This document shows positions 32,683 to 56,309 of a stretch of DNA of 64,000 nucleotides, piece after piece. Every line of letters starts with the position of its first letter. Within the stretch, counting starts at the first letter, position 1. Both the position numbers and the translations under genes were made by a program. The notes under the pieces are model-generated. The model searched no databases and was not told the origin of the DNA. It worked only from the letters and a program-made list of their open reading frames with translations. The stretch comes from Ascidia mentula. Taxonomy: Eukaryota > Chordata > Ascidiacea > Phlebobranchia > Ascidiidae. The DNA lies in NCBI GenBank assembly GCA_947561715.1, contig OX387204.1, positions 7,135,001 through 7,199,000 of the forward strand. The letters run 5' to 3'.

Positions 32683-33617
32683 TTAAATGTAGGTGTTAAG
32701 CATGACGAGGAACATATCCTTGGCGAAGACACTCTTATTCATCTTGGCAGAGAACTCGGCCAAAAGCTTGTTGACTAAATCGATGGTAATCTGGCGGATG
32801 TTGTCAATGGCGCTCTGTATGTTCTTGATTTTCTTTTCCTGTGCGGCATTAACTTCGGAAATCTTGCGAAGGACGGCGTCTTGGGCGGCATTGCGTCCAA
32901 TCTCGGATCGTATGATGTTGTCTTGGCCGTTGTTCTTGGCGACAGCGGCATCAATAGAGGAATCCTGTTTTCCGTTCTTTGATCTGAGCATATTCAAGCT
33001 ATCTTCCTGCTTGTTGTTGGTGTCGCGCACTGTGTTAAGGCGAATTTCTTGGGCTGAGTTTACGTCACGGATGGCATGGATTTGATTTTGTTGATCAGAG
33101 TTGACGCGCTCCTGTGCAGAGAGACGAGAGTCCTGCTTTGAGTTGTGGCTTCTCAAGGAACCCAACTGACTGTCCTGTTCGTTGTTCTTGCGCTGTGCAG
33201 CCGCAACTGACTGCTTCATCCTTGCCAACATGTTTTCCAACTCCTTGTTTTCCTTGTAAAGATAGGAAACCTCGCTATACAGACGAGCGTTGATGGTCCC
33301 TTGTTTCTTAATCAAAGCCTCCATCTTGTAGTGGGCGCTGTTGAAATTGGTTACGATGGAGTAGATGGCGCAGACCTTTCTGTTCACTGCAGCAACGTAG
33401 CTTGTAGCGCTGTTAATTCTGGCATCGCGTAGCCTAAACCAGTAGTTCACATCGTTCTTGTAGCGGTCAAAAGTGCTGCATCGCTAAAAGGTAATCGTTT
33501 AAAAATAACAAAAAAAACTCGCCGCTAAAACACTTAACTCACCAAATAGTACGCGGACGCTTGTGGAACAATCATCGACGCCACGAGGACGACGGAAACG
33601 ACAAATATCAGTTTCAT
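32683..33617 (-). CDS. Secreted tetradecad-repeat coiled-coil protein, paralogue A
   Basis: Two exons, 33543-33617 (25 codons, signal peptide MKLIFVVSVVLVASM...) and 32683-33483, encode 291 residues. After cleavage near PQASA the mature N-terminus begins YYLRCSTFDRYKNDVNYWFR. Residues ~125-250 are nine contiguous 14-residue repeats of pattern N-x-x-Q-[DE]-x-x-[IL]-x-x-x-x-x-x, for example NSKQDSRLSAQERV. Plotted as two heptads, one a/d layer pair is mainly Ile/Leu or Ala and the next is Asn/Gln. The layout matches paralogue B on the other side of a 955-bp shared upstream region. A secreted or extracellular-matrix rod is likely. I recognise no named family. Confidence 0.85.
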
Positions 33618-34572: not shown

Positions 34573-35714
34573 ATGAAGTTTGTTTCCATTGTCGTGATCG
34601 CTTTCGCCGCAATGGTGATTCTCCCGGAGTCATCAAATGCCTGGCTTGTGGTAAGTTTCTGTGCGAAAAGAAGACTTCTGTTAACTAATAAAAACTAATA
34701 TCTTGCCTTTTTGTTCGCAGAGGTGTTCGACTTTCGACGGCTACAAGCGTGATGTCTCCAACTGGTTTAGATACCGCGACGCCAGAATCAATTCCGTTTA
34801 CTCTTACGCCAGCGCTATCGCCAGGAAGGCCTGCGATACCTACACAAAGGTGAAAAACTTCGACGCCACTACCAAGAAAATGGAATCCTACATGCGCAGT
34901 CAAGGTCACGTCAACTCACTCCTCACACATCAAATGAGCGATTTGAAGAACAAAAATGCCGCTCTCCGTAGGGAAATGGAAGCCCTCGCATCTTCCATCA
35001 ACTCCATCAACAGCAAGAACGGCCAGCAGGACAGCGAGTTGAGCAAGATGAGGAGTCACAACTCCAAGCAAGATTCACGCTTGGGCTCTATCGAGAATGT
35101 GAACAACGGTCAGAATAGGGACATTGGCGGACTCCGCGACACCAACGCCGCCCAGGACAGAAGCATCGGCGATTTGCAGTCGGTCAACAGCAGACAGGAC
35201 ACCGCCATTTCCGACTTGCGCAACAAGGATGCCTCTCAGGACAGCGCCATCTCGGCCATCAACTCCAAGAACGCGGCTCAGGACAAGGCCATCAGCGGTG
35301 TGAAGAAGGTCAACGACGATCAGCAACAAAGAATCAACGCAGCCGTGGCCATGAATGCCGCCCAGGATAGTAAGATCAACGACATGTTTAACCATTTGAA
35401 GAACATCGCTGACGTCACAACCAAGTTGGTGAAGGAACTTCTCCACGAATTTAGTCAGAAGGTGAACAAATGCGTCTTCTCCGACGACATGTTCATGTGC
35501 ATGCTTGCGCCCCCAACTCGCGCGGCCTACACCTACACCAGAGCCAGCAGCATCAGTAAGTACAAAAATCTTCATCATTTGTGTGTGCTGGTCTCGTACA
35601 AGTACACTAAAATACATTGCATTGTAGTTTCATCCATTTTGAGCGTAATTCTGGTGAAACTTTAACGCACTTATCTTTGCAGGTGCCGAGCAGGTTCTCA
35701 GTGACGCCGCATAG
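34573..35714 (+). CDS. Secreted tetradecad-repeat coiled-coil protein, paralogue B
   Basis: Three exons, 34573-34650, 34721-35555 and 35683-35714, encode 314 residues. The first 22 residues (MKFVSIVVIAFAAMVI...) form a signal peptide, cleaved near SSNA. The mature start RCSTFDGYKRDVSNWFRYRD aligns with paralogue A. Residues ~126-251 hold nine 14-residue repeats such as NAAQDRSIGDLQSV and NAAQDKAISGVKKV, in the same register and number as in A. Only B has Cys in its C-terminal KCVFSDDMFMCML segment and a short last exon (AEQVLSDAA). The alternating I-L / N-Q layers suggest a polar-core coiled coil, perhaps trimeric. That is inference. Confidence 0.87.
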
Positions 35715-36041
35715 ATGCCAAGTCCGATCCGCGCCCAATGACTCCTAACCAACGACCGCATGAACCGCCCACCCTCAAAACTTGCATTTATTATTTCTTG
35801 TCTAGTTTTTAGATTACTCGATGTTGGTTGCATTTCTACATGTGGTTGTGTAGAAAAATCCTCATTTGTTCTTTACCGTCGCAATTATTTTCGTTCGCTC
35901 GTTTTATCGCTGTTTTTGCTCAAACGTTTTATTCTGAATACATGCATGTTCAAGCAATTTGTCTCTTAAATTACATTAAATATGGCAGTTTTGGAAACTA
36001 TTTAGCGTTGATAAACATGGCAAAACTTTTTAAATTAATTT

Positions 36042-36047
36042 AATAAA
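36042..36047 (+). terminator. Polyadenylation signal of paralogue B
   Basis: AATAAATAAAAA lies about 330 bp past the stop codon, inside the first array unit. The matching sites in units 2-4 have changed (for example AATGAATGAAA), so only the copy next to the gene keeps the signal. Confidence 0.6.
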
Positions 36048-37537
36048 TAAAAATCTACGTTGTCTTGGGACAAAGTAATTTACATTCACAACTAAGCCAT
36101 GGAAGCACGAGAAAATGAAGATAATTTCAGATTATATATTAATTTTAGTTGTAAGTTTGGGTGTGTGACGAAAGTAGAAGGCTTTTCGGTGAATGACGGA
36201 GATATGCTCTTTAAACCCAAGTGTTGTCACTGACCTCGTCGCAAGATGTCGCTAATAAACAAGAAGGCAAAGATCTGTAGGCGTTTTTCGGTGCCACAAA
36301 TATCCTGGGTTCAAATACCGGTGTGGTCAAAAATAAGAATATTTTGACACGTGGATATATGTGTACATATATCAGGTACAAAAAAACCGTGATAAAGAAG
36401 GGTATACAAACATGTAGAACACTATAACCGCATAAATATTCATTTGAACTTGGATCAGATTTAAGGTGCGGTACAAAGCGGAGGTTGAATTGCCGGACAT
36501 TGGGGGCATAACATCAGATTTTGATTTTACAATTTTGAAACGAAACTAACGGACCTGGCTGCGGGCCTTTGTGTATTGCCCTCCCTACAAAACAACGCAG
36601 GATTTACTTAAACCCGAAGCATTCTGTTTGATTAGACCTCGCCTCACTGACGTATAGGTAGTGCCCTTGCGGCATCCTTTTTGTATATTTTGCAACCGTT
36701 TGTGATTGCAGGGAAGGATGCGCAAGCCAAATGCCTACAGAAGCCACAAAAAACTCGTAATTGATGTTGCGGTACGTGCGCACTTCAACGCTGTAATTAC
36801 ACAGCTGAACGCAAATATTTGCTGATGCAATATACTTTGTTCGTTGTGAAATCACTAAACTACAGTTTAAACTTGGTAACATGGATGTTTATTGACAAAC
36901 AAAGTTGCGTTAACCAACGAAAGCGCAATGGTGCCATATTTTACGCTTGGGTACACCAACAACTAACATCAATGATATATAGTAGATTTCTGCAGAAAGG
37001 TAAAAATCACTTCAGGCATTAAAGAACGATTAGTAATAACCCTTTACTACGAACACCAACCTTACAATTGCAACAAGACATTAAAAACGTAAAATCACCA
37101 AACGAATGCTCGTCAACACCGGGTGTTCCTTTATACATCAAATACACAACACCGAGCTTTTGAGGACTTTTTTCTTTCACAATTTTCTGTTTCTGTTTGT
37201 TGTGCAAATATGGCGGCGAATGTACAAGGTGCTATTTGCAGGGGGCGTGTAATCTCATACGTTTGAAACATGACAACTTGTCTTTTTATCCGCAATATGA
37301 CAATAACCTTCCACTGAACTTAACTGAGGCTGAAGTTTGATGCGCCACCTGGTGGCACGGAGTAACGGAAGGTCGTCTTTTTTCGCGAATCGTCAGATTG
37401 TTCTCCTGTGCGACAAAGAACTTGATGTTAAATATTCTCGTTCAAAAGAGGCTTTCGTGCAAAAAGTCGTCTTAATGCAACGATTTCGAATATGTTAGAG
37501 AGTGGCGAGAGTTCAACACTTATTGCTGCTATTGTAT

Positions 37538-37903
37538 TCATTGTGCCGTTTTAACCAGTTGATTTAATGAGTTCAGATAGCAAAATTTTTCTGACCTTAT
37601 CATGCATTGTATGAATGTGATTATTAGGTTGTCCTGTTCAATGCACAAACCTGAGAAGCTCCAACCGGACTGATGCATCGAACGATGACCGGAAGTTCTT
37701 GTAAATCTTTCAGACCTTTCCTCATTTTTCTCCCTAAGCTTAGGTCCGTTCACAGAAGGGAAGGCAGTCGGTGGTTCCATGCTGTCTTTGGAGCTCAAAT
37801 ATAAGCCCTTCATCATTTCATCGCGTACGTCAAATTGGCTGTAAATCAATGGCGGCTTCATGGGACGTTCCAACAAGTTACCATGTGATTGGACGACGTG
37901 CAC
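37538..37903 (-). CDS. Alternative CRMP terminal exon, copy 1 (most distal)
   Basis: The acceptor GATGCAG is followed at 37903 by GTG CAC in phase 0, and 121 codons run to the stop at 37538. The tail contains [20 protein letters not shown] and [13 protein letters not shown]. The latter matches the conserved CRMP tail motif (HQSGFSLSG in vertebrates). It joins in phase to exon 44729-45004. Using this copy needs a splice over about 6.8 kb. Confidence 0.72.
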   Translation of the reverse strand: MHVVQSHGNLLERPMKPPLIYSQFDVRDEMMKGLYLSSKDSMEPPTAFPSVNGPKLREKNEERSERFTRTSGHRSMHQSGWSFSGLCIEQDNLIITFIQCMIRSEKFCYLNSLNQLVKTAQ

Positions 37904-38010
37904 CTGCATCAACATTGTGTTTGCAGTTTGTACTCATAGCGGTATTGCGTTGAGGACATAATGAAGATGGAATAGATGGCGAAATTCATTAGCTTGGTAA
38001 AATAAATTCA

Positions 38011-40169
38011 AAAAATCCTCATTCGTTCTTTACCGTCGCAATTATTTTCGTTCGCTCGTGTTATCGCTGTTTTTGCTCAAACGTTTTATTCTGAATACAT
38101 GCATGTTCAAGCAATTTGTCTCTTAAATTACATTAAATATGACAATCTTGGAAACTATTTAGCGTTGGCAAAACTTCTTCACATGAATTAAATGAATGAA
38201 AATCTACGTTGCCTTGGGACAAAGTAATGTACATTCACAACTAAGCCATGAAAGCACGAGCAAATTAGGATAATTTCAGATTATATATTGATTTTAGTTG
38301 TAAGTTTGGATATGTGATAAAAGTGGAAGGCATTTCGGTGAATGACGGAGATATGCTCTTTAAACCCAAGTGTTGTCACTGGCCTCGTCGCAAGACGTCG
38401 CTAATATACAAGAAGGTAAAGATCGGTGGGCGTTCGGTGCCACAAATATCCTGGGTTCCAATACAGGTGTGGTCAAAAGTAAGAATATTTTAACACGTGG
38501 GTATATGGGCACATATATCAGGTACAAAAAAACCGTGATAAAGAAGGGTATACAGACATGTAGAACACTATAACCGCATAGATATTCATTTGAACTTGGT
38601 TCAGATTTAAGGTGCGGTACAAAGCGGAGGTTGAATTGCCGGACATTGGGGGCATAACATCAGATTTTCCTGAGTAATTTGATTTTACAAAAACGAAATT
38701 AACGGGCCTTTGTGTACTGCCCTCCCTAAAAAACAACGCATGATTTACTTAAACCAGAAGCATTCTGTTTGATTAAACCTCGCCTTACTGACGTATAGGT
38801 AGTGCCCTTGCGGCATCCATTTTGTATATTTTGCAAGCGTTTGTGATTGCAGAGAAGGATGCGCAAGCCAAATGCCTACAGAAGCCACAAAACACTCGTG
38901 ATTGATGTTGCGGTACGTGCGCACTTCAACGCTGTAATTACACAGCTGAACGCAAATAATTGCTGATGCAATATGCTTTGTTTGTTGTGAAAATACTAAA
39001 CTACAGTTTAAACTTGGTAACACGGATGTTTATTGACACAAGTAACAAAATATCCAAACAAAGTTGCGTTAACCAACGAAAGCGCAATGGTGCCATACTT
39101 TACGCTTGGGTACACCAACGACTAACATCAATGGTATATAGTAGATTTCTGCAGAAAGGTAAAAATCACTTCAGGCATTAAAGAACGATTAGTAATAACC
39201 CTTTACTACGAACACCAACCTTACATTTGCAACAAGACATTAAAAACGTAAAATCATCAAACGAATGCTCGTCAACACCGGGTGTTCCTTTATACATCAA
39301 ATACACAACACCGAGCTTTTGAGGATTTTTTTCTTTCACAATTTTCTGTTTCTGTTTGTTGTGCAAATATGGCGGCGAATGTACAAGGTGCTATTTGCAG
39401 GGGGCGTGTAATCTCATACGTTTGAAACATGACAACTTGTCTTTTTATCCGCAATATGACAATAACCTTCCACTGAACTTAACTGAGGCTGAAGTTTGAT
39501 GCGCCACCTGGTGGCACGGAGTAACGGAAGGTCGTCTTTTTTCGCGAATCGTCAGATTGTTCTCCTGTGCGACAAAGAACTTGATGTTAAATATTCTCGT
39601 TCAAAAGAGGCTTTCGTGCAAAAAGTCGTCTTAATGCAACGATTTCGAATATGTTAGAGAGTGGCGAGAGTTCAACACTTATTGCTGCTATTGTATTCAT
39701 TGTGCCGTTTTAACCAGTTGATTTAATGAGTTCAGATAGCAAAATTTTTCTGACCTTATCATGCATTGTATGAATGTGATTATTAGGTTGTCCTGTTCAA
39801 TGCACAAACCTGAGAAGCTCCAACCGGACTGATGCATCGAACGATGACCGGAAGTTCTTGTAAATCGTTCAGACCTTTCCTCATTTTTCTCCCTAAGCTT
39901 AGGTCCGTTCACAGAAGGGAAGGCAGTCGGTGGTTCCATGCTGTCTTTGGAGCTCAAATATAAGCCCTTCATCATTTCATCGCGCACGTCTAATCGGCTG
40001 TAAATCAATGGCGGCTTCATGGGACGTTCCAACAAGTTGCCATGTGATTGGACGACGTGCACCTGCATCAACAGTGTGTTTGCAGTTTGTACTCATAGCG
40101 GTATTGCGTTGAGGACATAAAGAAGATGGAATAGATGGCGAAATTCATTAGCTTGGTAAAATAAATTCA
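38011..40169. repeat. Array unit 2 (2159 bp)
   Basis: This unit carries CRMP terminal-exon copy 2 and the same internal variant as unit 1 near 39440. The AATAAA of the coiled-coil gene is lost here. Confidence 0.92.
39697..40062 (-). CDS. Alternative CRMP terminal exon, copy 2
   Basis: It is an intact 366-bp exon with the same acceptor (GATGCAG) and phase as copy 1. It reads [19 protein letters not shown] and otherwise differs little from copy 1. The next unit upstream lies 2.1 kb away. Confidence 0.72.
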   Translation of the reverse strand: MHVVQSHGNLLERPMKPPLIYSRLDVRDEMMKGLYLSSKDSMEPPTAFPSVNGPKLREKNEERSERFTRTSGHRSMHQSGWSFSGLCIEQDNLIITFIQCMIRSEKFCYLNSLNQLVKTAQ

Positions 40170-42342
40170 AAAAATCCTCATTCGTTCTTTACCGTCGCAA
40201 TTATTTTCGTTCGCTCGTTTTATCGCTGTTTTTGCTCAAACGTTTTATTCTGAATACATGCATGTTCAAGCAATTTGTCTCTTAAATTACATTAAATATG
40301 ACAATCTTGGAAACTATTTAGCGTTGGCAAAACTTCTCCACATTAATTAATTAAATGAAAATCTACGTTGCCTTGGGACAAAGTAATGTACATTCACAAC
40401 TAAGCAATGAAAGCACGAGCAAATTAGGATAATTTCAGATTATATATTGATTTTAGTTGTAAGTTTGGATATGTGATAAAAGTGGAAGGCATTTCGGTGA
40501 ATGACGGAGATATGCTCTTTAAACCCAAGTGTTGTCACTGGCCTCGTCGCAAGATGTCGCTAATAGACAAGAAGTTAAAGATCGGCAGGCGTTCGGTGCC
40601 ACAAATATCCTGGGTTCAAATACCGGTGTGGTCAAAAATAAAAATATTTTAACTCGTGGGTATATGGGCACATATATCAGGTACAAAAAAACCCGTGATA
40701 AAGAAGGGTATACAAACATGTAGAACACTATAACCGCATAGATATTCATTTGAACTTGGTTCAGATTTAAGGTGCGGTACAAAGCGGAGGTTGAATTGCC
40801 GGACATTGGGGGCATAACATCAGATTTTCGTGAGTAATTTAATTTTACAATTTTGAAACGAAATTAACGGACCTGGCTGCGGGCCTTTGTGTATTGCCCT
40901 CCCTACAAAACAACGCAGGATTTATTTAAACCCGAAGCATTCTGTTTGATAAACCTCGCCTCATTGACGTAAAGGTAGTGCCCTTGCGGCATCCATTTTG
41001 TATATTTTGCAAGCGTTTGTGATTGCAGAGAAGGATGCGCAAGCCAAATGCCTACAGAAGCCACAAAAAACTCGTAATTGATGTTGCGGTACGTGCGCAC
41101 TTCAACGCTGTAATTACACAGCTGAACGCAAATAATTGCTGATGCAATATTCTTTCTTTGTTGTGAAATCACTAAACTACAGTTTAAACTTGGTAACACG
41201 GATTTTTATTGACACAAGTAACAAAATATCGAAACAGAGTTGCGTTAACCAACGAAAGCGCAATGGTGCCATATTTTACGCTTGGGTACACCAACGACTA
41301 ACATCAATGGTATATAGTAGATTTCTGGAGAAAGGTAAAAATCACTTCAGGCATTAAAGAACGATTAGTAATAACCCTTTACTACGAACAACAACCTTAC
41401 ATTTGCACTAAGACATTAAAAACGTAAAATCATCAAACGAATGCTCGTCAACACCGGGTGTTCCTTTATACATCAAATACACAACACCGAGCTTTTGAGG
41501 ATTTTTTTCTTTCACAATTTTCTGTTTCTGTTTGTTGTGCAAATATGGCGGCGAATGTACAAGGTGCTATTTGCAGGGGGGGTGCAATCTCATACGTCTG
41601 AAACATGACAACTTGTCTGATAGCACGTTGCATGGCAATAACCTCCCACTGAAATTAACTGAGGCTGAAGTTTGATGCGCCACCTGGTGGCACGGAGTAA
41701 CGGAAAGTCGTTTTTTTTCGCGAATCGTCAGTCTGTTCTCCTGTGCGACAAAGAACTTGATGTTAAATATTCTCGTTCAAAAGAGGCTTTCGTGCAAAAA
41801 GTCGTCTTAATGCAATGATTTCGAATATGTTAGAGAGTGGCGAGAGTTCAACACTTGCTGCTATTGTATTCATTGTGCCGTTTTAACCAGTTGATTTAAT
41901 GAGTTCAGATAGCAAAATGTTTCTGACCTTATTATGCATTGTATGAATGTGATTATTAGGTTGTCCTGTTCAATGCACAAACCTGAGAAGCTCCAACCGG
42001 ACTGATGCATCGAACGATGACCGGAAGTTCTTGTAAATCGTTCAGACCTTTCCTCATTTTTCTCCCTAAGCTTAGGTCCGTTCACAGAAGGGAAGGCAGT
42101 CGGTGGTTCCATGCTGTCTTTGGAGCTCAAATATAAGCCCTTCATCATTTCATCGCGTACGTTTAATCGGCTGTAAATCAATGGCGGCTTCATAGGACGT
42201 TCCAACAAGTTACCATGTGATTGGACGACGTGCACCTGCATCAACAGTGTGTTTGCAGTTTGTACTCATAGCGGTATTGCGTTGAGGACATAATGAAGAT
42301 GGAATAGATGGCGAAATTCATTAGCTTGGTAAAATAAATTCA
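40170..42342. repeat. Array unit 3 (2173 bp)
   Basis: This unit carries terminal-exon copy 3. Near 41615 it has the variant CTGATAGCACGTTGCATGG, shared with unit 4 but not with units 1-2. Confidence 0.92.
41870..42235 (-). CDS. Alternative CRMP terminal exon, copy 3
   Basis: It is an intact 366-bp exon with acceptor GATGCAG, phase 0. It reads [15 protein letters not shown] and differs from copies 1 and 2 by a few residues (for example QCIIRSETFC). Confidence 0.72.
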   Translation of the reverse strand: MHVVQSHGNLLERPMKPPLIYSRLNVRDEMMKGLYLSSKDSMEPPTAFPSVNGPKLREKNEERSERFTRTSGHRSMHQSGWSFSGLCIEQDNLIITFIQCIIRSETFCYLNSLNQLVKTAQ

Positions 42343-44513
42343 AAAAATCCTCATTCGTTCTTTACCGTCGCAATTATTTTCGTTCGCTCGTTTTATCGCT
42401 GTTTTTGCTCAAACGTTTTATTCTGAATACATGTATGTTCAAGCAATTTGTCTCTTAAATTACATTAAATATGACAATCTTGGAAACTATTTAGCGTTGG
42501 CAAAACTTCTTCACATGAATTAAATGAATGAAAATCTACGTTGCCTTGGGACAAAGTAATGTACATTCACAACTAAGCAATGAAAGCACGAGCAAATTAG
42601 GATAATTTCAGATTATATATTGATTTTAGTTGTAAGTTTGGATATGTGATAAAAGTGGAAGGCATTTCGGTGAATGACGGAGATATGCTCTTTAAACCCA
42701 AGTGTTGTCACTGGCCTCGTCGCAAGACGTCGCTAATATACAAGAAGGTAAAGATCGGCAGGCGTTCGGTGCCACAAATATCCTGGGTTCAAATACCGGT
42801 GTGGTCAAAAATAAAAATATTTTAACACGTGGCTATATGGGTACATATATCAGGTACAAAAAACCTGTGGCAAAGAAGGGTATACAAACATGTAGAACAC
42901 TATAACCGCATAGATATTCATTTGAACTTGGTTCAGATTTAAGGTGCGGTACAAAGCGGAGGTTGAATTGCCGGACATTGGGGGCATAACATCAGATTTT
43001 CGTGAGTAATTTAATTTTACAATTTTGAAACGAAATTTACGGACCTGGCTGCGGGCCTTTGTGTACTGCCCTCCCTACAAAACAACGCAGGATTTATTTA
43101 AACCCGAAGCATTCTGTTTGATAAACCTCGCCTCATTGACGTAAAGGTAGTGCCCTTGCGGCATCCATTTTGTATATTTTGCAAGCGTTTGTGATTGCAG
43201 AGAAGGATGCGCAAGCCAAATGCCTACAGAAGCCACAAAAAACTCGTAATTGATGTTGCGGTACGTGCGCACTTCAACGCTGTAATTACACAGCTGAACG
43301 CAAATATTTGCTGATGCAATATACTTTCTTTGTTGTGAAATCACTAAACTACAGTTTAAACTTGGTAACACGGATGTTTATTGACACAAGTAACAAAATA
43401 TCCAAACAGAGTTGCGTTAACCAACGAAAGCGCAATGGTGCCATACTTCACGCTTGGGTACACCAACGACTAACATCAATGGTATATAGTATATTTCTGC
43501 AGAAAGGTAAAAATCACTTCAGGCATTAAAGAACGATTAGTAATAACCCTTTACTACGAACACCAACCTTACATTTGCAACAAGACATTAAAAACGTAAA
43601 ATCATCAAACGAATGCTCGTCAACACCGGGTGTTCCTTTATACATCAAATACACAACACCGAGCTATTGAAGATTTTTTTCTTTCACAATTTTCTGTTTC
43701 TGTTTGTTGTGCAAATATGGCGGCGAATGTACAAGGTGCTATTTGCAGGGGGAGTGTAATCTCATACGTCTGAAACATGACAACTTGCTGATAGCACGTT
43801 GCATGGCAATAACCTCCCACTGAATTTAACTGAGGCTGAAGTTTGATGCGCCACCTGGTGGCACGGAATAACGGAAGGTCGTCTTTTTTCGCGAATCGTC
43901 AGTCTGTTCTCCTGTGCGACAAAGAACTTGATGTTATATATTCTCGTCCAAAGAAGGCTTTCGTGCAAAAAGTCGTCTTAATGCAACAATTTTGAATATG
44001 TTAGAGAGTGGCGAGAGTTCAACACTTGCTGCTATTGTATTCATTGTGCCATTTTAACCAGTCGATTTAATGAGTTCAGATAGCAAAATTTTTCTGACCT
44101 TATTATGCATTGTATGAATGTGATTATTAGGTTGTCCTGTTCAATGCACAAACCTGAGAAGCTCCAACCGGACTGATGCATCGAACGATGACCGGAAGTT
44201 CTTGTAAATCGTTCAGGCCTTTCCTCATTTTTCTCCCTAAGCTTAGGTCCGTTCACAGAAGGGGAGGCAGTCGGTATTTCCATATTGTCGTTGGAGCTCA
44301 AATGCAAGCCCTTCATCATTTCATCGCGCACGTCTAATCGGTTGTAAATCAATGGCGGCTTCATAGGACGTTCCAACAAGTTGCCATGTGATTGGACGAC
44401 GTGCACCTGTAACAACAGTGTGTTTGCAGTTTGTACTCATAGCGGTATTGCGTTAAGGACATAATGAAGATGGAATAGATGGCGAAATTCATTAGCTTGG
44501 TAAAATCAATTCA
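42343..44513. repeat. Array unit 4 (~2171 bp)
   Basis: This unit adjoins the CRMP coding body and carries terminal-exon copy 4. It ends where similarity to the other units stops, just after GCTTGGTAAAAT, in the last CRMP intron. Confidence 0.9.
44041..44406 (-). CDS. CRMP terminal exon, copy 4 (proximal)
   Basis: The 366-bp exon nearest the gene body is preceded by GTTGTTACAG, whereas the other copies have GTTGATGCAG. It is the most divergent copy: [19 protein letters not shown], then [15 protein letters not shown] and [11 protein letters not shown]. It alone contains an S-P dipeptide in the stretch where vertebrate CRMPs are phosphorylated by proline-directed kinases. Confidence 0.8.
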   Translation of the reverse strand: MHVVQSHGNLLERPMKPPLIYNRLDVRDEMMKGLHLSSNDNMEIPTASPSVNGPKLREKNEERPERFTRTSGHRSMHQSGWSFSGLCIEQDNLIITFIQCIIRSEKFCYLNSLNRLVKMAQ

Positions 44514-47500
44514 TGTGCAGCCATTGAGCAAATACGGGAGGATGTGTTTACCGCATCCAGCGTATTGTGTTTTCTTAACGCCTGCTGAGTGGGAATGCTC
44601 ATCAACGGACTGGAGTAGCTATTTCGGAGGGATGCATTTTAGTTCCATTGTAATTAATACCGTTATAACAAACAACTATAAAAGTATTACGTGTATTTTG
44701 TACAAAATACACAAAACAAAGCACACACCTCATTTTCATCCAAAACCACTTTTCCTCGACTAATCACAACCACAGGAGCTCCGTTGCTTTCAACTTCGTC
44801 AAAGACATTCGCGCAATCGGCTTTAGTGATGTTCAGAGCCGACGCGCTGGCTGCCAATGAGCGGTGTTCGTTGGCGCGCCAAACCACCAGGTCGGCGTCC
44901 GAGCCAATGGCAACGTGTCCTTTTCGCGGAAAAAGATTGAAAAGCCTCGCAGCATTTGTGCTCGTGAGAGCAACAAATTGGTTTTGGTCGATGTTCCCTT
45001 TTTCCTGAAAAAATTATTATGTAAGACGTCGCAAAACATATTTGTTGCAGTCCATGTTGTTTAAGTTTGAACTGTTTTGTTGAGGAAAAACCTACGTTTC
45101 AAAAGAAACAACTCGTTACAACTGGTATTGGTTTAAAAGTACGAACTGTTGGATTTGTGCCAGCGCGGACGAATGAAATAGTCCCTTGTTTGCAATCAGC
45201 ACACAACTATTTTAATTCCACAGCATGATTTGAAATTAGGTTGTCTAGAGACAAAGTCTTCGGGTTCTTCGCTTGTCACACCTTGTCCAATAACTAAAAC
45301 ACAACATTTGCTCACCACCCCTAGATTCCAGAGCGCCATCATGCGTTCAAACGCGCCATTGGTCCCTGGCGGAATATTCGTAAAATCGCTTTTTCCCAAT
45401 TTGCTCTTTGATGTATTCGAGAACGTACAGTGCCCGCTGGAAACGCATTGAATGTTGCCACTAAAATGGAAAACGTTTAAACAAGGCAATCCCGTGGTAT
45501 TGTAAATATTTTTTTTGAACCTGGACAAGGCATCGAACAAGCGTTGCTGGGCGAGTGGTTCGTCCCGAAGAGGTGGCCAAGTAAGGCAGGCGGTGGCCTT
45601 GTTCCACGACGCGTTTTGATACGAGGATCCGTTTCGGCACAAGGCAACCGCGTTTACTTGGCCGTAAACTTGTTGACCTGTAAGATTGACTAAAAAGTTA
45701 AACTAAAGAAAAAACATGCGATAAAAATTCACATTTTTGTATTTAGTGGCTGTCATACCAAATACATGTCAAATGTATGCAAAAAAATGTGTGCAAACAT
45801 GTTTCGTAGACACCTCTTATGCCAGCAACCTTTTACGGATGCTGCTTACCTATTCGCCTCGCTTCGCTTATGGCGTTCACCGCTCTTACTCCAGTCAGAT
45901 TGATGAACATGACGGGACAAGAAACTTGTTTTGCGATGATGATGACGCGGTTAACTGCTTCCCACTCGACCTGCAAGGAGTAATCAAATCAACCCCGTGT
46001 GTCATTGGAGGATTCAAAGGTAACATTGCCATACATACATCCTCGTTTCTAGCAGTGAGAATACCAGCTGGTTGCGAACGTCCTTTAACCTTTTCAGCTT
46101 GACCCAGTTTTCGTACCAATGATCCGTTTTCGGCGTGAACGAGCGCCACGCCACCTAGTGTCCGGATATGCAGGAGAACCTCGAATATCTTCAGAAAACG
46201 ATTCTTTTTAGTTTTCAATATGTTAACATGCATAGGATGCTCTAATTTAATACTTTTAAGACGATTTAACTGTTTTTGAATACAACGTATATGTTTAAAC
46301 TTGTTAGAACAAATTCACTAACATTGTCATGACAGTAATAAAGTAACGTAACAGTCTTTATGAAAAACGGCATACTAAGACTTGAGATGCCCTTGGGCGT
46401 TCTACTTTGGTCCGCTAACGCATTTTGCAACACGGCCTGGAGGTCTTAAACATACTTAGTTTATGTAACTTGTTGCACAACTATCGACCTTTAAATTTCG
46501 AAAAAAACACGTAATAAACGGACGTTTTTATCGAAACATGTCAATGATTTTTTAAGCTGTCATCGCTCTCCTTTTTGATACAAACGTGGTGAAGTACTTT
46601 AATAACCAACGCTAAAGATCCTCCACACACCCACTAGAAAAGATTTCGCACTCCCAGATTAAGAACCAATATACCAAGATGTGATGTTACGATTTCAATG
46701 GCGTCAAATAAATGTTCCTTATTTCACAGATTATCTCACAGCGGTATCTATGAACAGGTGGCACAATGTTTGCCTGGAGAAGCCAATGACTTTGCGTTTG
46801 CCCACCCCTGGTTTATGATTTATTCAGAACCTGTTCGTCGCTGAGATGATATCGATCGCTCGTCCGTACACGGAAGGAGTTGACTCCGTGTTCCATCGCC
46901 AACGTCGTCATCGATTTCTTGACATCTTCGTTCCATGACGTCACGTCTACATGTAGGCTGACGTCACAGCAACTGGCCGCGCTAGTCTCCGAACGTTGCT
47001 GGTAAGAGGAAGTCAGTCCACCTTGGTCCGGCGTGACGTAATCGACTGAAGAAATAGGGTTTTAATTTTATCGCATTGATATTAATCACCCCCGTTTCCT
47101 ACCCGTGGTTTGCGGAGATTTTGTCTCATTAAAGACTGTTTTTATGTTGAAGTAAGAAGAAGTTTGCAAGATAATTTTTTTTATAGTTAGAATATCACGT
47201 TTTTATCTTTTACATATACTAGTATCCAAAATCAGCAAGTTTAAGTCAATAGTTTTGATCGCTTTTAACAACACGCAGGTAAATGGGGGTGACATGCACA
47301 CTTGTTTTAGATGCCAATATGATAAGTTCCAAAAATATTTGCAATGCTATGTTACTGTACGGAAAGGTACTTTCCACTGTTATTATTTTGTTGCTGTAAT
47401 TTTTGTGTTATATGTGGTGGGTTGATGATCGCGAAATTCAGTGGACGCATAGTTGTTTACCATGAAAATGCATAACACTACTAAGTCCTTGTACGTAAGC

Positions 47501-48725
47501 TTGTCACGGTAACATAGTCAGACGGGAATTGTCGCGTACACAATGCATTAGGAATCGATGTAAATACACAGGGCATTCCGACGCCCTTGGGATTCCTAGA
47601 AAGGTGCCGAATTCCACTGGGACGCCTTTTGGTTAGGTAAACGGTCCAGGCCGTCAATCTTGTTTGCCGGCCTCGACCCGAAAACCCATAAGACTTCCAC
47701 GTTACGCTCTAAAATGACCTAATTGCGCCGCGCAGTGAATCAATCCCAATAACGGCATTTGCGAGCACAATGAGATCACTTACAAACGGTGGTCGTGCCT
47801 CCCAGAAGGGCCGCCCTAGTTCCGCTGTAGAAGTCGTCGGCTGTCGTTTCGTCGCTGTTACCTCCGCAACCGTACCATGATGACTTTGCAGCTAGGTTAA
47901 CCGACGGGTCGACACCTCCAGGTAGGATGAGGGCATCTTTTGCGTCAATGACAATCACACCGCCTGGAACTGTGAGATCCAGACCAAGTTGCCTGCGCCA
48001 GACGAAAAAATATGGAAAATACCCATACAAATTGCTTGGGTTTGAAGCCGACGAGACAAGAGACGTTTTGCAAATTTAACAACATTTGCTACATTTTTAC
48101 GTTGTTTTGCGATGAGGGTTAAAAAGGATATTTAAAGCCTACACATTTGCATCAAATTATGTTAAAAACCATACAATATCAACACAATAGGCAAGTTTGT
48201 GGGGGCGGTTTTATCACAGCAGTTATCTGTTCGCGTATCGGGTCGTATGCACGGGAAAAAGGTTTACCTTATCAAGCCGTTTTCAACAAAAATATCCGCT
48301 CTGAAGGTGTGATCATGATTGACAACCTTTCCACCCTTGATCAACAGACGTTCGCTCTGCAAAATTTGCACGTCAATTTAGATGTATACGGTAAAGGTCG
48401 TGTTCGGGCATTTGCCAGCGATATAGAAAATTTGTACGTTATACAAAAAAACAGCTCTTGATGTGGATCCCCGAATCTTGCAATTTACGAGTTTGAGGAA
48501 ACCACCGAACCTATTTTAAAACTGCAAGTTTGTCGCCTGGAGCGTTTCAAGCGACGTTAGCCTAAATTGCTTCTCATGCCGCGCGTTTATAACATGCTAA
48601 AAACTCCCGTCGTAAGTTTCTGCTAATTATTTGCATTAAGATTGAACTGGGAAAAATCCACCGCAGGCGCTTTCGACCTCTGCACTTACCGCAATTTTTG
48701 GAATACTTCTCTTGTTCTGACTCAT
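44041..48725 (-). CDS. DPYSL: Collapsin response mediator protein (dihydropyrimidinase-like)
   Basis: Ten exons in consistent phase give 587 residues with the proximal terminal exon: 48690-48725 (ATG at 48725, [12 protein letters not shown]), 48268-48356, 47784-47992, 46831-47045, 46039-46188, 45850-45970, 45521-45677, 45316-45460, 44729-45004, 44041-44406. Vertebrate CRMPs have about 570. Family landmarks are [90 protein letters not shown] and [10 protein letters not shown]. The metal-binding HxH of active dihydropyrimidinases is absent (GGVDPSVNL), so it is probably non-catalytic. CRMPs regulate microtubules and actin in axon guidance. The C-terminal tail with HQSGWSFSG is the CRMP-specific part and exists in four tandem versions. 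Confidence 0.93.
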
Positions 48726-51678: not shown

Positions 51679-54600
51679 ATGTTGGTGAAACTGTTGGCCT
51701 TATTTGGCCTTCTCTGCGTTTCCAAAACGGTAAGTGCGTATTTTTTTTTCTTGTTTTTTCTTTTGGAATATTTTGGTCTTGGGGTGGTAAAATTTTTTTA
51801 AAAACCTAAACAATTTGTTTTCACTATTACGCATAGTTTAATTCAAAACATCTTGAGGCAAATTGAGCTTTTTTGCCAGGGAAAGGTTATACGTGATATA
51901 CCCCAAGGCAATGTATCTCGTGATGTGGTTTGGCGCAATCTCTTCTGGAGCATAGATAATTGCATGGTTTCGCTGTGAAATATTTGCTACGAGTTTAACT
52001 GTGACACGTCTACACAAAGCAAAAAAAACAAAACATGGTTGTGTGTGTCTGTGTGTGTGTCAGAAAGCAACAATTGTAAAATGAAACATCCTTGTTATAA
52101 ATCTTTAATAAAAGCTTTCCGAAATACTTTTCGAAACAAAACGATTTTTTAGACTATTCAATTATGTACATTTATCCGCATAAAGTCGTTTGAGTTCGGT
52201 CGTACCGCACAAACACCTGATTGTTTGGCTTCGAACTAATCCTCTTTACGTCACGAGTTTAAGTATAAGCACTCTCTCACAACAGTGATGTGTCAAATAT
52301 GGGTAAATATTTCGGACAATGTGACACATTCTGTTGTTTTCCTCAGAAAACAGTAAAATGAAAATGGCTTTTTAATCTTCAAAATGCTGTGGCGAAAAAA
52401 ACACTGTAATGCAACACCTTCAAGTGGACGTAACAAAATAATACAAATAATCGCGCTCTTGAAAGGAATTTTTGGCTTGGGTTGTTACAATTTTTTTGTA
52501 TAAAACTACCGGGGGCGGTGACTTTTACGTAAAAACTATCGCGGTTACTATCTGGTTCCGTGAATTTTTGTATAATTCCACTCTGTGGGTTTGTTGCAGA
52601 ACGCCCTTAACTGGGGGAGAGATTTTGGACTTGGGCCGTCATCACCTACCGACGAGGTTGCAACAATTAGTGATTTATAACGATTACAAATTATTGTGAA
52701 ACAGAAATAGTATATGAGTTGAAAGCAGGTTAATATCACGAAACTATGTTCTCCTTACTAAGGCCACTTGAAAGTGACGGAATTGGTCAATAATAGTAAC
52801 ACACCTAAATGACGCAACAGATATTTAGAGTAGATTTGGGACGCAGGCGGAAACCGTTGAATTGTAGCTAGGAAATATTTATTGTAACCCAATGCGCCAA
52901 TTACACTATCACGCATGCGTCTTTTACAAATTCTCCACTTTTTCGTGATACGTGCTTTTATCGTAATTAAATCGATCTAGGATAATTTTTAATCTAGAAC
53001 AGCAAAGTTTGTTTTGATTTCAAAATGAGATTTTGCCTATAATTAGATATATTATATATATATATATATATATTACACGACCCATCAAGACTAAAATTTT
53101 ATAATACAAAAGCTGTGACCAAGTATTTTTTGGCCATAAAGCTAACATGAGAGTCTGGTAATGTACACTTATGATTGAGATTTCCAAAGATAAGCTTTCG
53201 CTAAGAAGTTCACAAGAACTCGCGTGTCATCATAGCTAAGGCAGAAAACGATTGCGTCATAAGTAGCGATAAGAATGCTGCCTTTCTGTATGTGCAACTT
53301 GCGATTAAGCTGCTTATGCCTGACAAATCGCTGCTACTTGTATAATAAATCTCTGCGTATAATAAATACATGTCGCAGCTTGTTTATAGAAGGTGACCTG
53401 CTGCTGTCACTGCGAAAATCCGTTTACCGGTATTTTTGGCTCAACGGCAAAGTTTCAACAAATCTGATCCTAAAAACTGTTTATTTCGTTTCTAAGGGTG
53501 AAAACCTTCCACGATAAATATTTCAATTTCATCTTTTGTTTCAGACGTCAATGGATTCTGACGAAAAACAGTTTCCAGACATAACGAGTATGTTTGTTGA
53601 TGGGGGCGATCTACTTTCATCCTGGGACGATCTGGATGTTGAGAACGACGACAAAGCAACCCGGGATGAGTTTGTCAGCGCTCCTGAGTTGCCTGAAGAA
53701 CTGCAAACAGAGTTGGAAGGAATTAAGTCAGCCATGGATGCCATTGAAGAAGACATTTCCGCTTTCGAGGTATTTGTGTTAGTTGTTGTGGTGAAAGAAT
53801 ACTTGCCATAAGAGGATAAATATGCATTGTTCTTTTGTTCAGGAACTTATATACGCTTTGAATGTTGCCGCAGCCAATGGCAAAACATCGATTACCCTCC
53901 CTGAAAAATTTATGCAGATTGAAAATTTTACAATCTCGGTGAGCAAACTTTTGCAACTGTAGTAATTATCGTTATAATTTTCTTTTGTATTTAATTTTTA
54001 ATTTAAACCAAAACCGCTGTTGTTTTCTTCCAAATTAAGGGATTATTAGACTCATAAATTTTTGCTATTTTTAGGAGGTCGCTGAGCTTTCACTTGGTGT
54101 TTTATCTTCTCTGAGAGGTTTAATCACTCAAACACAAGACGTTATTGATGACCTATTAAACAACTTGAGAACTTCCGAGCAAAAAATTACGCAGTAAGTA
54201 TTATCTACATCAGAAATCCAAGAAGTTGGAAATTATATTATCTTTGTCCATGTCTTTAATAGACCCAGCCTGATCGGCAGCTTGGAAGTGGCTAAGGCGT
54301 ACTTGGACACACGTATCGAAGACATTGCAGAGTACCGGGGTCAACTTTCACAATTCATTCAAGGTGACCAAAAGGAAGAGATTTACGAATCGAGCGGAAG
54401 TATGGAGCTCACAGAAGATGAAAATGAACTTACAGAAGATGAATCGAGCGGAAGTATGGAGCTCACAGAAGATGAAAATGAACTTACAGAAGATGAATCG
54501 AGCGGAAGTATGGAGCTCACAGAAGATGAAAATGAACTTACAGAAGATGAATCGAGCGGAAGTATGGAGCTCACAGAAGATGAAAATGAACTTACAGAAG

Positions 54601-56309
54601 ATGAATCGAGCGGAAGTATGGAGCTCACAGAAGATGAAAATGAACTTATAGAAGGAGAATCTAGCGGAAATGTGGATCTTGCAGAAACATACATTTTCGA
54701 AGAAGAGGAGAGCGAATCATCAGGAGATATCGACCTTATGTCTGGTTCATTGGAAGACTTAAACCTATTTTTAAGTACCCTGGGGGCTGAGGCAACTGAT
54801 GAAACCAACGCCAACCCCCACGCAAATGTTGTGCAGGGAACAGAAATCGCCGAACTTCGTAACACTTTTAGAAAACTGGTACGTCGAGCCGTTGATGATG
54901 ATTTATTTGATGCTCCTGCGGCTGCAGATGGGCAGGAGAGTGATTTACCCATCCCAGTCTCACCTTTTAACACATTTCCAGTAAACAATGGCGTTGGAGG
55001 GAGCGACGGTGATAGTTTAGAGACAGACCAAGCAAATCCATTGCTGGCTGAAACAGATCCATTGGCGAGTTTCATCAATAACATTCCCACGGAATACCCT
55101 TCCACAGATGCAGAAGCATCCGCTTCTAATTCCTCAAGCGTTGAAGAAGATTCGCCCGATCTGTATTCAATTGCGGAAGAACCGCCTCTCGGCATGACCC
55201 CTGAGGAATTAGAAGCCTTAGCAGAGCAATTGTTGAATCAGGAAAAACAAAACTATGGGGAGGTTTTCACTATGGAAAATCCTCATTTTAGCACCGCATA
55301 CCTTATTCCAACCTTTGGGGTCTTTGGTAGGGGTGAGTACGATCACGGTTTGGTAACAGCGGAACCAATGACAACAACTGCAGAAGAAGTTTTTGAGAAA
55401 GTGGATGCTGCTGATTACCCGCCATACGGAAATGGTCCTAACACCGACAACAATAACAATGTCGAAGCACCGGGTACCCAGGAGCCGGACGAAATAATGC
55501 AGGAAGGTAATACTGAAGGAGGTAGAGTCGATCTAAATATAGAAGAAAATATAGTTGCGGTCGAATCTATCGAAACGGACAATCAAGAAACAGACGATGA
55601 AGAATCAGAAATAGAGAAAGAAGCGCAAGAAGAGGACGAAGAGGACGAAGAGAAAGAAAAGGAAGAAGAAGAGGAAGAAGAGGAAGAAGCGGAAAAAGCG
55701 GAAGAAGCGGAACAAGAGGAAGAAGAGGCACAAGAGAAAGAAGAGGAAGAAGCGGAAGAAGCGGAAGAAGCGGAAGAAGCGGAAGAAGCGGAAGAAGCGG
55801 AAGAAGCGGAAGAAGCGGAAGAAGCGGAAGAAGCGGAAGAAGCGGAAGAAGCGGAAGAAGCGGAAGAAGCGGAAGAAGCGGAACAAGAGGAAGAAGAGGC
55901 ACAAGAGAAAGAAGAGGAAGAAGAGGTAGAGGCCGAAGTAGAACAGGCAATAGACACGTATGAAGAAAATTTGAACGAGGAAGACTCAGAAGATGAAAAT
56001 ATAATCGAAGAAAATTTTCCTGCGAAAGATTCCCTCGAAATTCAAATTGATCCCTACTCTGACGAGTTTTACTCGGACCCTCCAAACCAAGATGAAGAAT
56101 ACCTTGCGCTAAAAATAGCTTTGCCAGCTGTTGCGTTTTTGATCTTGCTTGCTTTGATAGGTTTGGTTGCTTTCGGCCACAGACGAAGGTCCGTTAAGGG
56201 ATTCAGCAACATCCAACGTAGCACTGTGCCTTACACAAGTTACGACAACGACATCGAGGCTTACAGTCCGTCTTCCTGTCGCAAGGGTGTGTACGCTGTT
56301 CAAGCGTAA
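51679..56309 (+). CDS. Acidic single-pass membrane protein, putative proteoglycan core
   Basis: Five coding exons (51679-51729, 53545-53769, 53843-53938, 54075-54193, 54263-56309) give 845 residues in consistent phase. A signal peptide (MLVKLLALFGLLCVSKT) opens the protein. Residues ~20-170 are amphipathic and helical. Then come five 18-residue repeats (SSGSMELTEDENELTEDE), further acidic Ser-Gly sites (GESSGN, SESSGD, LMSGS), a disordered Asp/Glu/Pro-rich stretch, and a poly-Glu/Ala tract. One membrane helix (ALPAVAFLILLALIGLVAF, ~784-802) precedes a 44-residue basic/Tyr-containing tail ending in KGVYAVQA. Ser-Gly in acidic context is the usual signal for glycosaminoglycan attachment, so a cell-surface proteoglycan is plausible. 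No named family is recognised. Confidence 0.82.
53047..53073. repeat. (TA)n microsatellite
   Basis: This is a nearly pure TA dinucleotide run in the first large intron of the acidic membrane-protein gene. Confidence 0.85.
54387..54665 (+). repeat. Coding minisatellite, 54-bp unit, five copies
   Basis: Units starting with GAATCGAGCGG lie at 54387, 54441, 54495, 54549 and 54603. The first four are essentially identical, and the fifth diverges at its end. The unit length is a multiple of three, so copy number can change without breaking the frame. Each copy adds one Ser-Gly site. Confidence 0.93.
55700..55920 (+). repeat. Poly-Glu/Ala coding tract, (GAAGAAGCG)n with duplicated flanks
   Basis: About fourteen GAAGAAGCG units (Glu-Glu-Ala) run from about 55750 to 55880. 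A segment reading GAACAAGAGGAAGAAGAGGC occurs on both sides (about 55708 and 55881), so the 9-bp tract sits inside a larger duplication. Leu/Pro- and Ser-rich open frames on the opposite strand are by-products of this tract. Confidence 0.9.

What the first reader, a model, noticed from the sequence alone, without database searches (positions are those of the whole stretch)
37538..45004. CRMP gene with four tandem, intact, mutually exclusive C-terminal exons
The exon ending at 44729 (LDENE, phase 0) can be followed by any of four 366-bp exons, starting at 44406, 42235, 40062 and 37903. Each has its own acceptor, the same phase, 121 codons and the CRMP tail motif HQSGWSFSG. No copy has an internal stop or frameshift. 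In vertebrates the CRMP tail is the phosphorylated regulatory region, so choosing a tail would diversify regulation while the folded core stays constant. I know of no described CRMP organised this way.
Basis: partly seen in the sequence, partly recalled or inferred. Interest (0 to 1): 0.87.

Follow-up and report, generated by a model that had tools for sequence, protein, structure and literature searches.

The report
Ascidian CRMP gene with four tails
In a sea-squirt genome the last two exons and 3' end of a nerve-growth gene (CRMP) sit in four nearly identical tandem copies, so the gene could in principle be finished with any of four tails, but nothing here shows that more than the first is used.

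Summary
The four copies are real, but the exons were misdrawn. The claimed 366-bp "exon" is a 253-bp penultimate exon (E10) plus a run into its intron. The true end of the protein is a separate 86-bp last exon (E11) in every copy. Tunicate, fish and human CRMP tails align straight across this junction.

What is duplicated is a 2.16-2.17-kb unit (E10, intron, E11, 3'UTR with AATAAA, about 1 kb downstream), four copies head to tail at 35854-44513. The gene is an 11-exon, 578-residue CRMP, probably of an ascidian (best listed hit 56% identical, Clavelina). Three identical internal junctions and divergence concentrated at the array's outer edges point to one founding duplication spread by unequal exchange. 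An assembler loop is unlikely.

E10 is not a multiple of 3, so only one E10 fits in frame per mRNA. Intact frames are weak evidence of use (P about 0.45 under neutrality). Substitutions look neutral in the linker and constrained in the conserved end, but not under every control. Units 2-4 lack tail 1's single Ser-Pro site.

Use of units 2-4 is unproven: no RNA, own genome or relatives' DNA could be examined. Tandem terminal-exon clusters are a known kind (fly pip).

The parts
44729..48725 (-). CRMP gene, exons 1-9: 48725-48690, 48356-48268, 47992-47784, 47045-46831, 46188-46039, 45970-45850, 45677-45521, 45460-45316, 45004-44729 (single copy; 466 codons ending LDENE, phase 0)
   Evidence: Spliced by hand at GT/AG sites, 1398 nt with no stop; homology to tunicate CRMPs along the whole length and to human CRMP2, E 8e-142
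42343..44513 (-). Tandem unit 1 (2171 bp): E10.1 44406-44154, intron 242 nt, E11.1 43911-43826, 3'UTR with AATAAA at 43382, about 1 kb downstream
40170..42342 (-). Tandem unit 2 (2173 bp): E10.2 42235-41983, intron 242 nt, E11.2 41740-41655, AATAAA at 41210
38011..40169 (-). Tandem unit 3 (2159 bp): E10.3 40062-39810, intron 245 nt, E11.3 39564-39479, AATAAA at 39034
35854..38010 (-). Tandem unit 4 (2157 bp): E10.4 37903-37651, intron 245 nt, E11.4 37405-37320, AATAAA at 36893
37651..44406 (-). Span holding the four copies of penultimate exon E10 (253 nt each, enters in phase 0, leaves in phase 1): tail linker plus HQSGWSFS
   Evidence: variable residues
37320..43911 (-).
   Evidence: homologous tails
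37985..42368 (-). Span holding the three internal unit junctions (42343/42342, 40170/40169, 38011/38010), identical over the 51 bp printed: ...GAATGAGGATTTTTTGAATTTATTTTACC...

Best explanation
This is a 3'-terminal partial tandem duplication of an ascidian CRMP gene. One break, with little or no homology by eye, joined sequence about 1 kb beyond the poly(A) signal to intron 9, duplicating the last two exons and the 3'UTR (shown by the three identical junctions). Unequal crossing-over or gene conversion then raised the count to four and homogenised the interior (inferred from the divergence pattern).

The likely working is as follows (inferred). Polymerase makes exons 1-9, E9 splices to the nearest E10, and the RNA is cut at the first AATAAA, so most mRNAs carry tail 1. 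Transcripts that read past it can splice E9 to E10.2, E10.3 or E10.4 (introns of 2493, 4666 and 6825 nt against 322 nt for unit 1). These give minor isoforms with the same folded core and a tail differing from tail 1 at 8, 8 or 10 residues. E10 leaves in a different phase from the one it enters in, so including two E10s shifts the frame into a stop. Only one tail can therefore be productive per mRNA, without any special regulator.
For: Array and unit boundaries. Full gene model and tail homology. GT/AG sites at 4 of 4 E10 and AG acceptors at 4 of 4 E11 copies. Double inclusion out of frame in 6 of 6 E10 pairs; intron lengths and residue differences recounted. AATAAA 427-445 nt after the stop in 4 of 4 units. 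Identical junctions at 3 of 3 sites. Unit-1-private sites concentrate at the 5' edge (22 against 4 unit-4-private) and unit-4-private sites at the 3' edge (29 against 1), Fisher p 1.4e-10; in the middle they are 10 and 16 (the two cut-offs were set after the columns had been listed). E10 acceptors of units 2-4 are slightly poorer in pyrimidines: 8, 8 and 7 of 16, against 9 in unit 1 and 8-12 in the eight upstream introns. In the conserved end block 5 of 6 changes are synonymous (simulated p 0.006; Poisson p 0.003 for the single nonsynonymous change).
Against: No RNA was available, so use of units 2-4 is not shown. The linker evolves like neutral DNA (5 synonymous and 11 nonsynonymous of 16). 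Intact frames are weak evidence: P(no stop) is 0.45, and about 1.9 coding indels would be expected against 0 seen. The constraint signal weakens under other controls: 6.4% of noncoding windows of that size have as few changes at codon-position 1+2 analogues, and Fisher for linker against conserved block gives p 0.056. Conversion from a constrained unit 1 could also produce it.
Confidence: 0.45

Rival explanations
1. Units 2-4 are silent by-products of duplication. Every transcript is spliced to E10.1-E11.1 and polyadenylated in unit 1, and the downstream copies are decaying DNA kept alike by exchange.
For: Nearest acceptor and first AATAAA after a tail both lie in unit 1. The linker substitutions are neutral-like. 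Unit 1 keeps the PER(F/Y) proline of the Clavelina and Ciona tails, while units 2-4 have Ser (two other tunicate-like proteins, P0004 and P0006, also lack that Pro, so this is weak).
Against: No stop, frameshift or splice-site loss in 4 of 4 copies. Few nonsynonymous changes in the conserved block, though not significant under every control.
Confidence: 0.3
2. A regulated tail switch: tail 1 carries the only Ser/Thr-Pro site (Ser514-Pro515), and tails 2-4 have Phe there. Choosing a distal unit would make CRMP blind to proline-directed kinases at the tail. Tails 2-4 also change residues in the segment equivalent to CRMP2 helix 19, a tubulin interface (N488S in all three, plus D491N in tail 2 and R489Q, L490F in tail 4).
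For: Unit 1 has one S/T-P and units 2-4 have none; 10 of 10 homologs in alignment A1 have at least one in the tail, but 6 of the 10 rows are from two Ciona species and P0007 is partial. Ser514 aligns with human CRMP2 Thr509 (counted by hand) and with the matching Thr-Pro of a fish CRMP (pairwise). Residues 488-491 align with CRMP2 480-483 (counted by hand), inside 476-487, described as a tubulin-dimer interface (PMC7325199, passages read). Substitutions.
Against: The multiple alignment does not place Ser514 on a Thr-Pro, and the linker is poorly alignable. The linker changes are neutral-like. No switch signal was found: pairing between the single-copy part of intron 9 and the pre-E10 segment is not better than shuffles in 4 of 4 units (0.40-0.65 of 200 shuffles as good).
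Confidence: 0.18
3. Assembly artefact: reads of one or two haplotypes looped into four copies.
For: Tunicates are highly polymorphic (recalled), and raw reads were not available.
Against: Copies differ by 2.9-5.6% overall, with a strong positional pattern: private sites of the first unit at the 5' edge and of the last unit at the 3' edge. An assembler loop would not be expected to produce this.
Confidence: 0.04
4. Tail-only mRNAs: tunicates use spliced-leader trans-splicing (recalled), so the E10 acceptors of units 2-4 could receive a leader and yield a short message for the tail alone, starting at the in-frame Met of ERPMKPP.
For: Each downstream E10 acceptor follows an AATAAA by about 1.1 kb (coordinates), and E10 holds an in-frame ATG (translation).
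Against: No spliced-leader or RNA evidence; not tested.
Confidence: 0.03

Closest known systems
Drosophila pip and PGRP-LC (and CG42235): tandem 3' variable regions
   Same: Homologous terminal exon clusters repeated in tandem at the 3' end of a gene and chosen one at a time; eight in pip (PMC9013439, passages read)
   Different: The paper treats pip under UTR examples and says choice depends on competing RNA structures, citing another paper not seen here. In the window, use is unknown and a simple pairing test found nothing. The unit here is two coding exons plus 3'UTR in a CRMP gene
Drosophila CRMP gene, mutually exclusive exons
   Same: A CRMP/dihydropyrimidinase-family gene with homologous alternative exons (PMC7954323, passages read)
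   Different: In the fly the swapped exon changes a zinc ligand in the core; here the tail would be swapped and the core kept. The primary paper (Morris 2012) was seen only in a reference list; it is not held
Human C-terminal tandem duplicated exon substitutions, and TPM1/Tm1/lev-11 3' exons
   Same: 77 of 236 human tandem-duplicated exon events swap C-termini; TPM1, Tm1 and lev-11 each have three tandem 3' exons (PMC9741552, passages read)
   Different: The paper calls most of those events ancient, with highly expressed isoforms (start of abstract); the copies here differ by only 2.9-5.6% and expression is unseen
Vertebrate CRMP2 (DPYSL2)
   Same: Whole-length homology including the tail HQSGFSLSG...PPGG
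   Different: The review passages read describe long and short isoforms that differ at the N-terminus, and no tail copies (PMC7325199, 12 of 28 places shown)

Membership tests
CRMP (dihydropyrimidinase-related) | Full-length similarity to CRMPs above dihydropyrimidinases | tested here: met
   PDB search: CRMP2 E 8e-142 against the best dihydropyrimidinase, 4h00, E 7.9e-108 (CRMP5 chains, E 7.2e-113 and 3.2e-105, lie about level with the enzymes). Best listed proteins are tunicate and vertebrate CRMPs (120 of 6139 hits shown, 8000 candidates scored)
CRMP (dihydropyrimidinase-related) | C-terminal tail after the amidohydrolase core with the HQSG(F/W)S(L/F)SG...PPGG motif | tested here: met
   Present in 4 of 4 copies once E11 is spliced in
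CRMP (dihydropyrimidinase-related) | Amidohydrolase domain | tested here: met
   Pfam PF01979, E 7.2e-16, residues 64-461
CRMP (dihydropyrimidinase-related) | Microtubule/tubulin binding, kinase-regulated | not testable with these tools
   Needs biochemistry
Mutually exclusive tandem terminal exon cluster | Homologous tandem exons, each with an acceptor, the same entry phase and a terminator | tested here: met
   4 of 4 units: AG acceptors, entry phase 0, stop in E11, AATAAA
Mutually exclusive tandem terminal exon cluster | Double inclusion is not productive | tested here: met
   253 nt is 1 mod 3; 6 of 6 E10-E10 joins reach a stop 8 or 28 codons after the junction codon
Mutually exclusive tandem terminal exon cluster | More than one member is spliced into mRNA | not testable with these tools
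   No RNA data in reach
Mutually exclusive tandem terminal exon cluster | Competing RNA pairing (as reported for pip and PGRP-LC) | tested here: inconclusive
   Only the single-copy part of intron 9 against the 107 nt before each E10 was tested; not better than shuffles in 4 of 4
Mutually exclusive tandem terminal exon cluster | Copies under purifying selection | tested here: inconclusive
   Conserved block 5 synonymous to 1 nonsynonymous, p 0.006 or 0.003; other controls 0.056 and 6.4%

The most novel reading that the evidence does not exclude
A chordate CRMP whose regulatory tail is chosen by RNA processing. Tail 1 can be switched by proline-directed kinases (Ser514-Pro515, perhaps the counterpart of CRMP2 Thr509), while tails 2-4 lack any such site and change residues in the helix-19 tubulin-contact segment. 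Neurons could then make kinase-sensitive and kinase-blind CRMP from one gene, with the number of tail units varying between animals through unequal crossing-over.
Probability: 0.13. Interest if true: 0.75.

Novelty: new member of a known kind. Interest (0 to 1): 0.42.

Why it matters
If units 2-4 are used, this is a natural swap of a CRMP regulatory tail on a constant core. It would let one ask directly what tail phosphorylation does in a simple chordate nervous system. Even if they are silent, the locus is a clear example of how a two-exon terminal cassette with its own poly(A) signal is duplicated and amplified. That is a step one would expect before mutually exclusive terminal exons evolve, seen here with copies only 3-6% different.

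Tried and rejected
Reading the 366-bp frame as the exon: rejected. The frame past codon 85 is intron, and homologs follow the spliced E11.

Intact frames as proof of selection: rejected. P(no stop) is 0.45 under neutral change.

Competing RNA pairing: simple duplex test negative. It used a rough dinucleotide-preserving shuffle of my own.

Statistics not used: a Fisher test of codon positions was fed wrong counts (11,5 and 2,4; the script itself shows 9,7 for the linker). A linker test used a threshold of 6 although 5 synonymous changes were observed; only its mean (4.2 of 16) is used.

tRNA and Rfam (gathering threshold) scans of the window: nothing. The scan ran with the bacterial-code setting.

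A tail-only protein search scored 80 candidates and returned 2 (P0004, P0006; unnamed JGI proteins). It missed the known Ciona and Clavelina tails, so it says nothing about how widespread the array is.

Paper searches on CRMP with ascidian, Ciona, Drosophila, tunicate or exon 13 and on terminal exon duplication showed no report of CRMP tail copies in the listings (titles and starts of abstracts; searches returned no papers). The library is open-access only. No structure prediction was run.
Full report
What was checked. The minus strand at 37.4-46 kb was read and translated. The donor after LDENE at 44729 and the four acceptors are where the finding says. A window self-comparison shows a four-unit head-to-tail array at 35854-44513, with units of 2157-2173 bp and, among the hits listed (over 80 bp, E up to 1e-10), no other copy in the window.

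The gene. Splicing by GT/AG gives nine single-copy exons (48725-44729, 1398 nt, open) followed by E10 and E11, 578 residues in all. The closest listed proteins are tunicate: Clavelina lepadiformis 56% identity, Ciona savignyi 53%, Ciona intestinalis 54% (120 of 6139 hits listed). Human CRMP2 aligns over residues 3-575, E 8e-142, ahead of the best dihydropyrimidinase, 7.9e-108. The species was not identified; that it is an ascidian is inferred from these hits.

The main correction. Each copy of E10 is 253 nt and ends in phase 1 at a GT donor right after HQSGWSFS(G). Then come an intron of 242 nt (units 1, 2) or 245 nt (units 3, 4) and an 86-nt last exon encoding (G)EQ(T/S)DDSRKKTTFRYSVPPGGASNFSLS and a stop. 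The homologous tails continue in the same way: [15 protein letters not shown]...PPGGLSHFSLT in Clavelina and HQSGFSLSGAQIDDN...PPGGRANI in human CRMP2.

Consequences for splicing (inferred from phases and order). Any E9-E10.i-E11.j with j at or beyond i is in frame. That makes ten combinations but six distinct tails, because E11.1 and E11.2 encode the same peptide and so do E11.3 and E11.4. Joining two E10s gives a stop 8 or 28 codons after the junction codon in 6 of 6 pairs. Every unit has AATAAA 427-445 nt after the stop, so each could end a transcript. E10 acceptors are pyrimidine-poor in all units and slightly poorer in units 2-4.

How the array arose. The three internal junctions are identical over the 51 bp printed, so one break probably made the first duplication. 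Of 152 variable columns, unit-1-private sites dominate the 5' edge (22 against 4) and unit-4-private sites the 3' edge (29 against 1; p 1.4e-10), with mixed patterns between (the cut-offs were set after seeing the columns). This is what repeated unequal exchange or conversion leaves, with the outer edges protected and the interior homogenised. An assembly loop would not be expected to give it, but reads were not available.

Selection. Coding columns vary at 22 of 339 and noncoding at 130 of 1785. Pairwise dN/dS over the tail is 0.09-0.50. The linker (codons 1-65) has 5 synonymous and 11 nonsynonymous changes (neutral mean 4.2 synonymous of 16). The block from RFTRTSGHR to the end has 5 and 1 (simulated p 0.006; Poisson p 0.003). 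Against this, Fisher between the blocks is p 0.056, and 6.4% of noncoding windows show as few changes at equivalent positions. The block boundary was chosen from the tunicate alignment after the changes had been seen, though moving it changes the counts little (4-5 synonymous, 1-2 nonsynonymous). Exchange can also move an E11 that was constrained in unit 1 into other units. The evidence for use of units 2-4 is therefore suggestive at best.

What differs between the tails. Against unit 1, unit 2 differs at 8 residues, unit 3 at 8 and unit 4 at 10. Units 2-4 share N488S, H501Y, N505K, N507S, I510P, S514F and P530S. Unit 2 adds D491N; unit 3 adds T554S; unit 4 adds R489Q, L490F and T554S. Ser514-Pro515 is the only Ser/Thr-Pro in tail 1, and units 2-4 have none; the ten homologs of alignment A1 have 1 to 5 each (six rows are two Ciona species and one of these, P0007, is partial). 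Pairwise alignments put Ser514 on human CRMP2 Thr509 and on the matching Thr-Pro of a fish CRMP; the multiple alignment does not. Residues 488-491 align with CRMP2 480-483, within helix 19, described as a tubulin-dimer interface; Thr509 and Ser522 are described as phosphosites that affect CRMP2 function (PMC7325199, passages). Because the linker changes are neutral-like, these differences may carry no function.

Known relatives. Tandem terminal exon clusters chosen one at a time are reported for fly pip, and competing RNA structures for the 3' variable regions of PGRP-LC, CG42235 and pip (PMC9013439, passages). C-terminal swaps make up 77 of 236 human tandem-duplicated exon events (PMC9741552, passages). 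The fly CRMP gene has mutually exclusive core exons (PMC7954323, passages). No CRMP tail array appeared in the listings of the searches made, which cover open-access papers only. I file it as a new member of the tandem terminal-exon kind, structurally; functional membership needs RNA.

Limits. The own-genome search was unreachable in 11 of 11 attempts, so other CRMP genes and other copies of the unit were not looked for. No eukaryotic relatives' DNA was examined, so age and spread of the array are unknown.

Noticed in passing
32685-33617 (-) and 34573-35665 (+): A divergent pair of genes alike by eye, each with a signal-peptide-like first exon and a repetitive coiled-coil-like second exon (N-x-x-Q-D-like repeats). 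No Pfam match to the two second-exon frames. The + gene runs towards the end of the CRMP array.
   Followed up: partly
54198-56309 (+): 703-codon open frame, very acidic, with about five near-identical 18-residue repeats (54-bp period, SSGSMELTEDENELTEDE) and a long EEAEEA run, ending in a transmembrane-like segment by eye; no Pfam match.
   Followed up: partly
43770-43825 and equivalents in the other units: Just after the stop codon, units 1-2 and units 3-4 carry quite different short sequences (14 variable columns in 56 bp), like a converted or replaced tract.
   Followed up: no
residues 66-74 of the CRMP (exon 3, 47992-47784): The metal-binding H-x-H of dihydropyrimidinases (motif recalled) is absent here (GGVDPSVNL) and in the Ciona proteins (GGIDLAVEF).
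   Followed up: no
25058-25423 (-) and 57191-58315 (-): Pieces of an organic anion transporter (OATP, E 2.1e-15) and of a Ras-family GTPase (E 2.3e-8) whose open frame runs on well beyond the Ras match.
   Followed up: no
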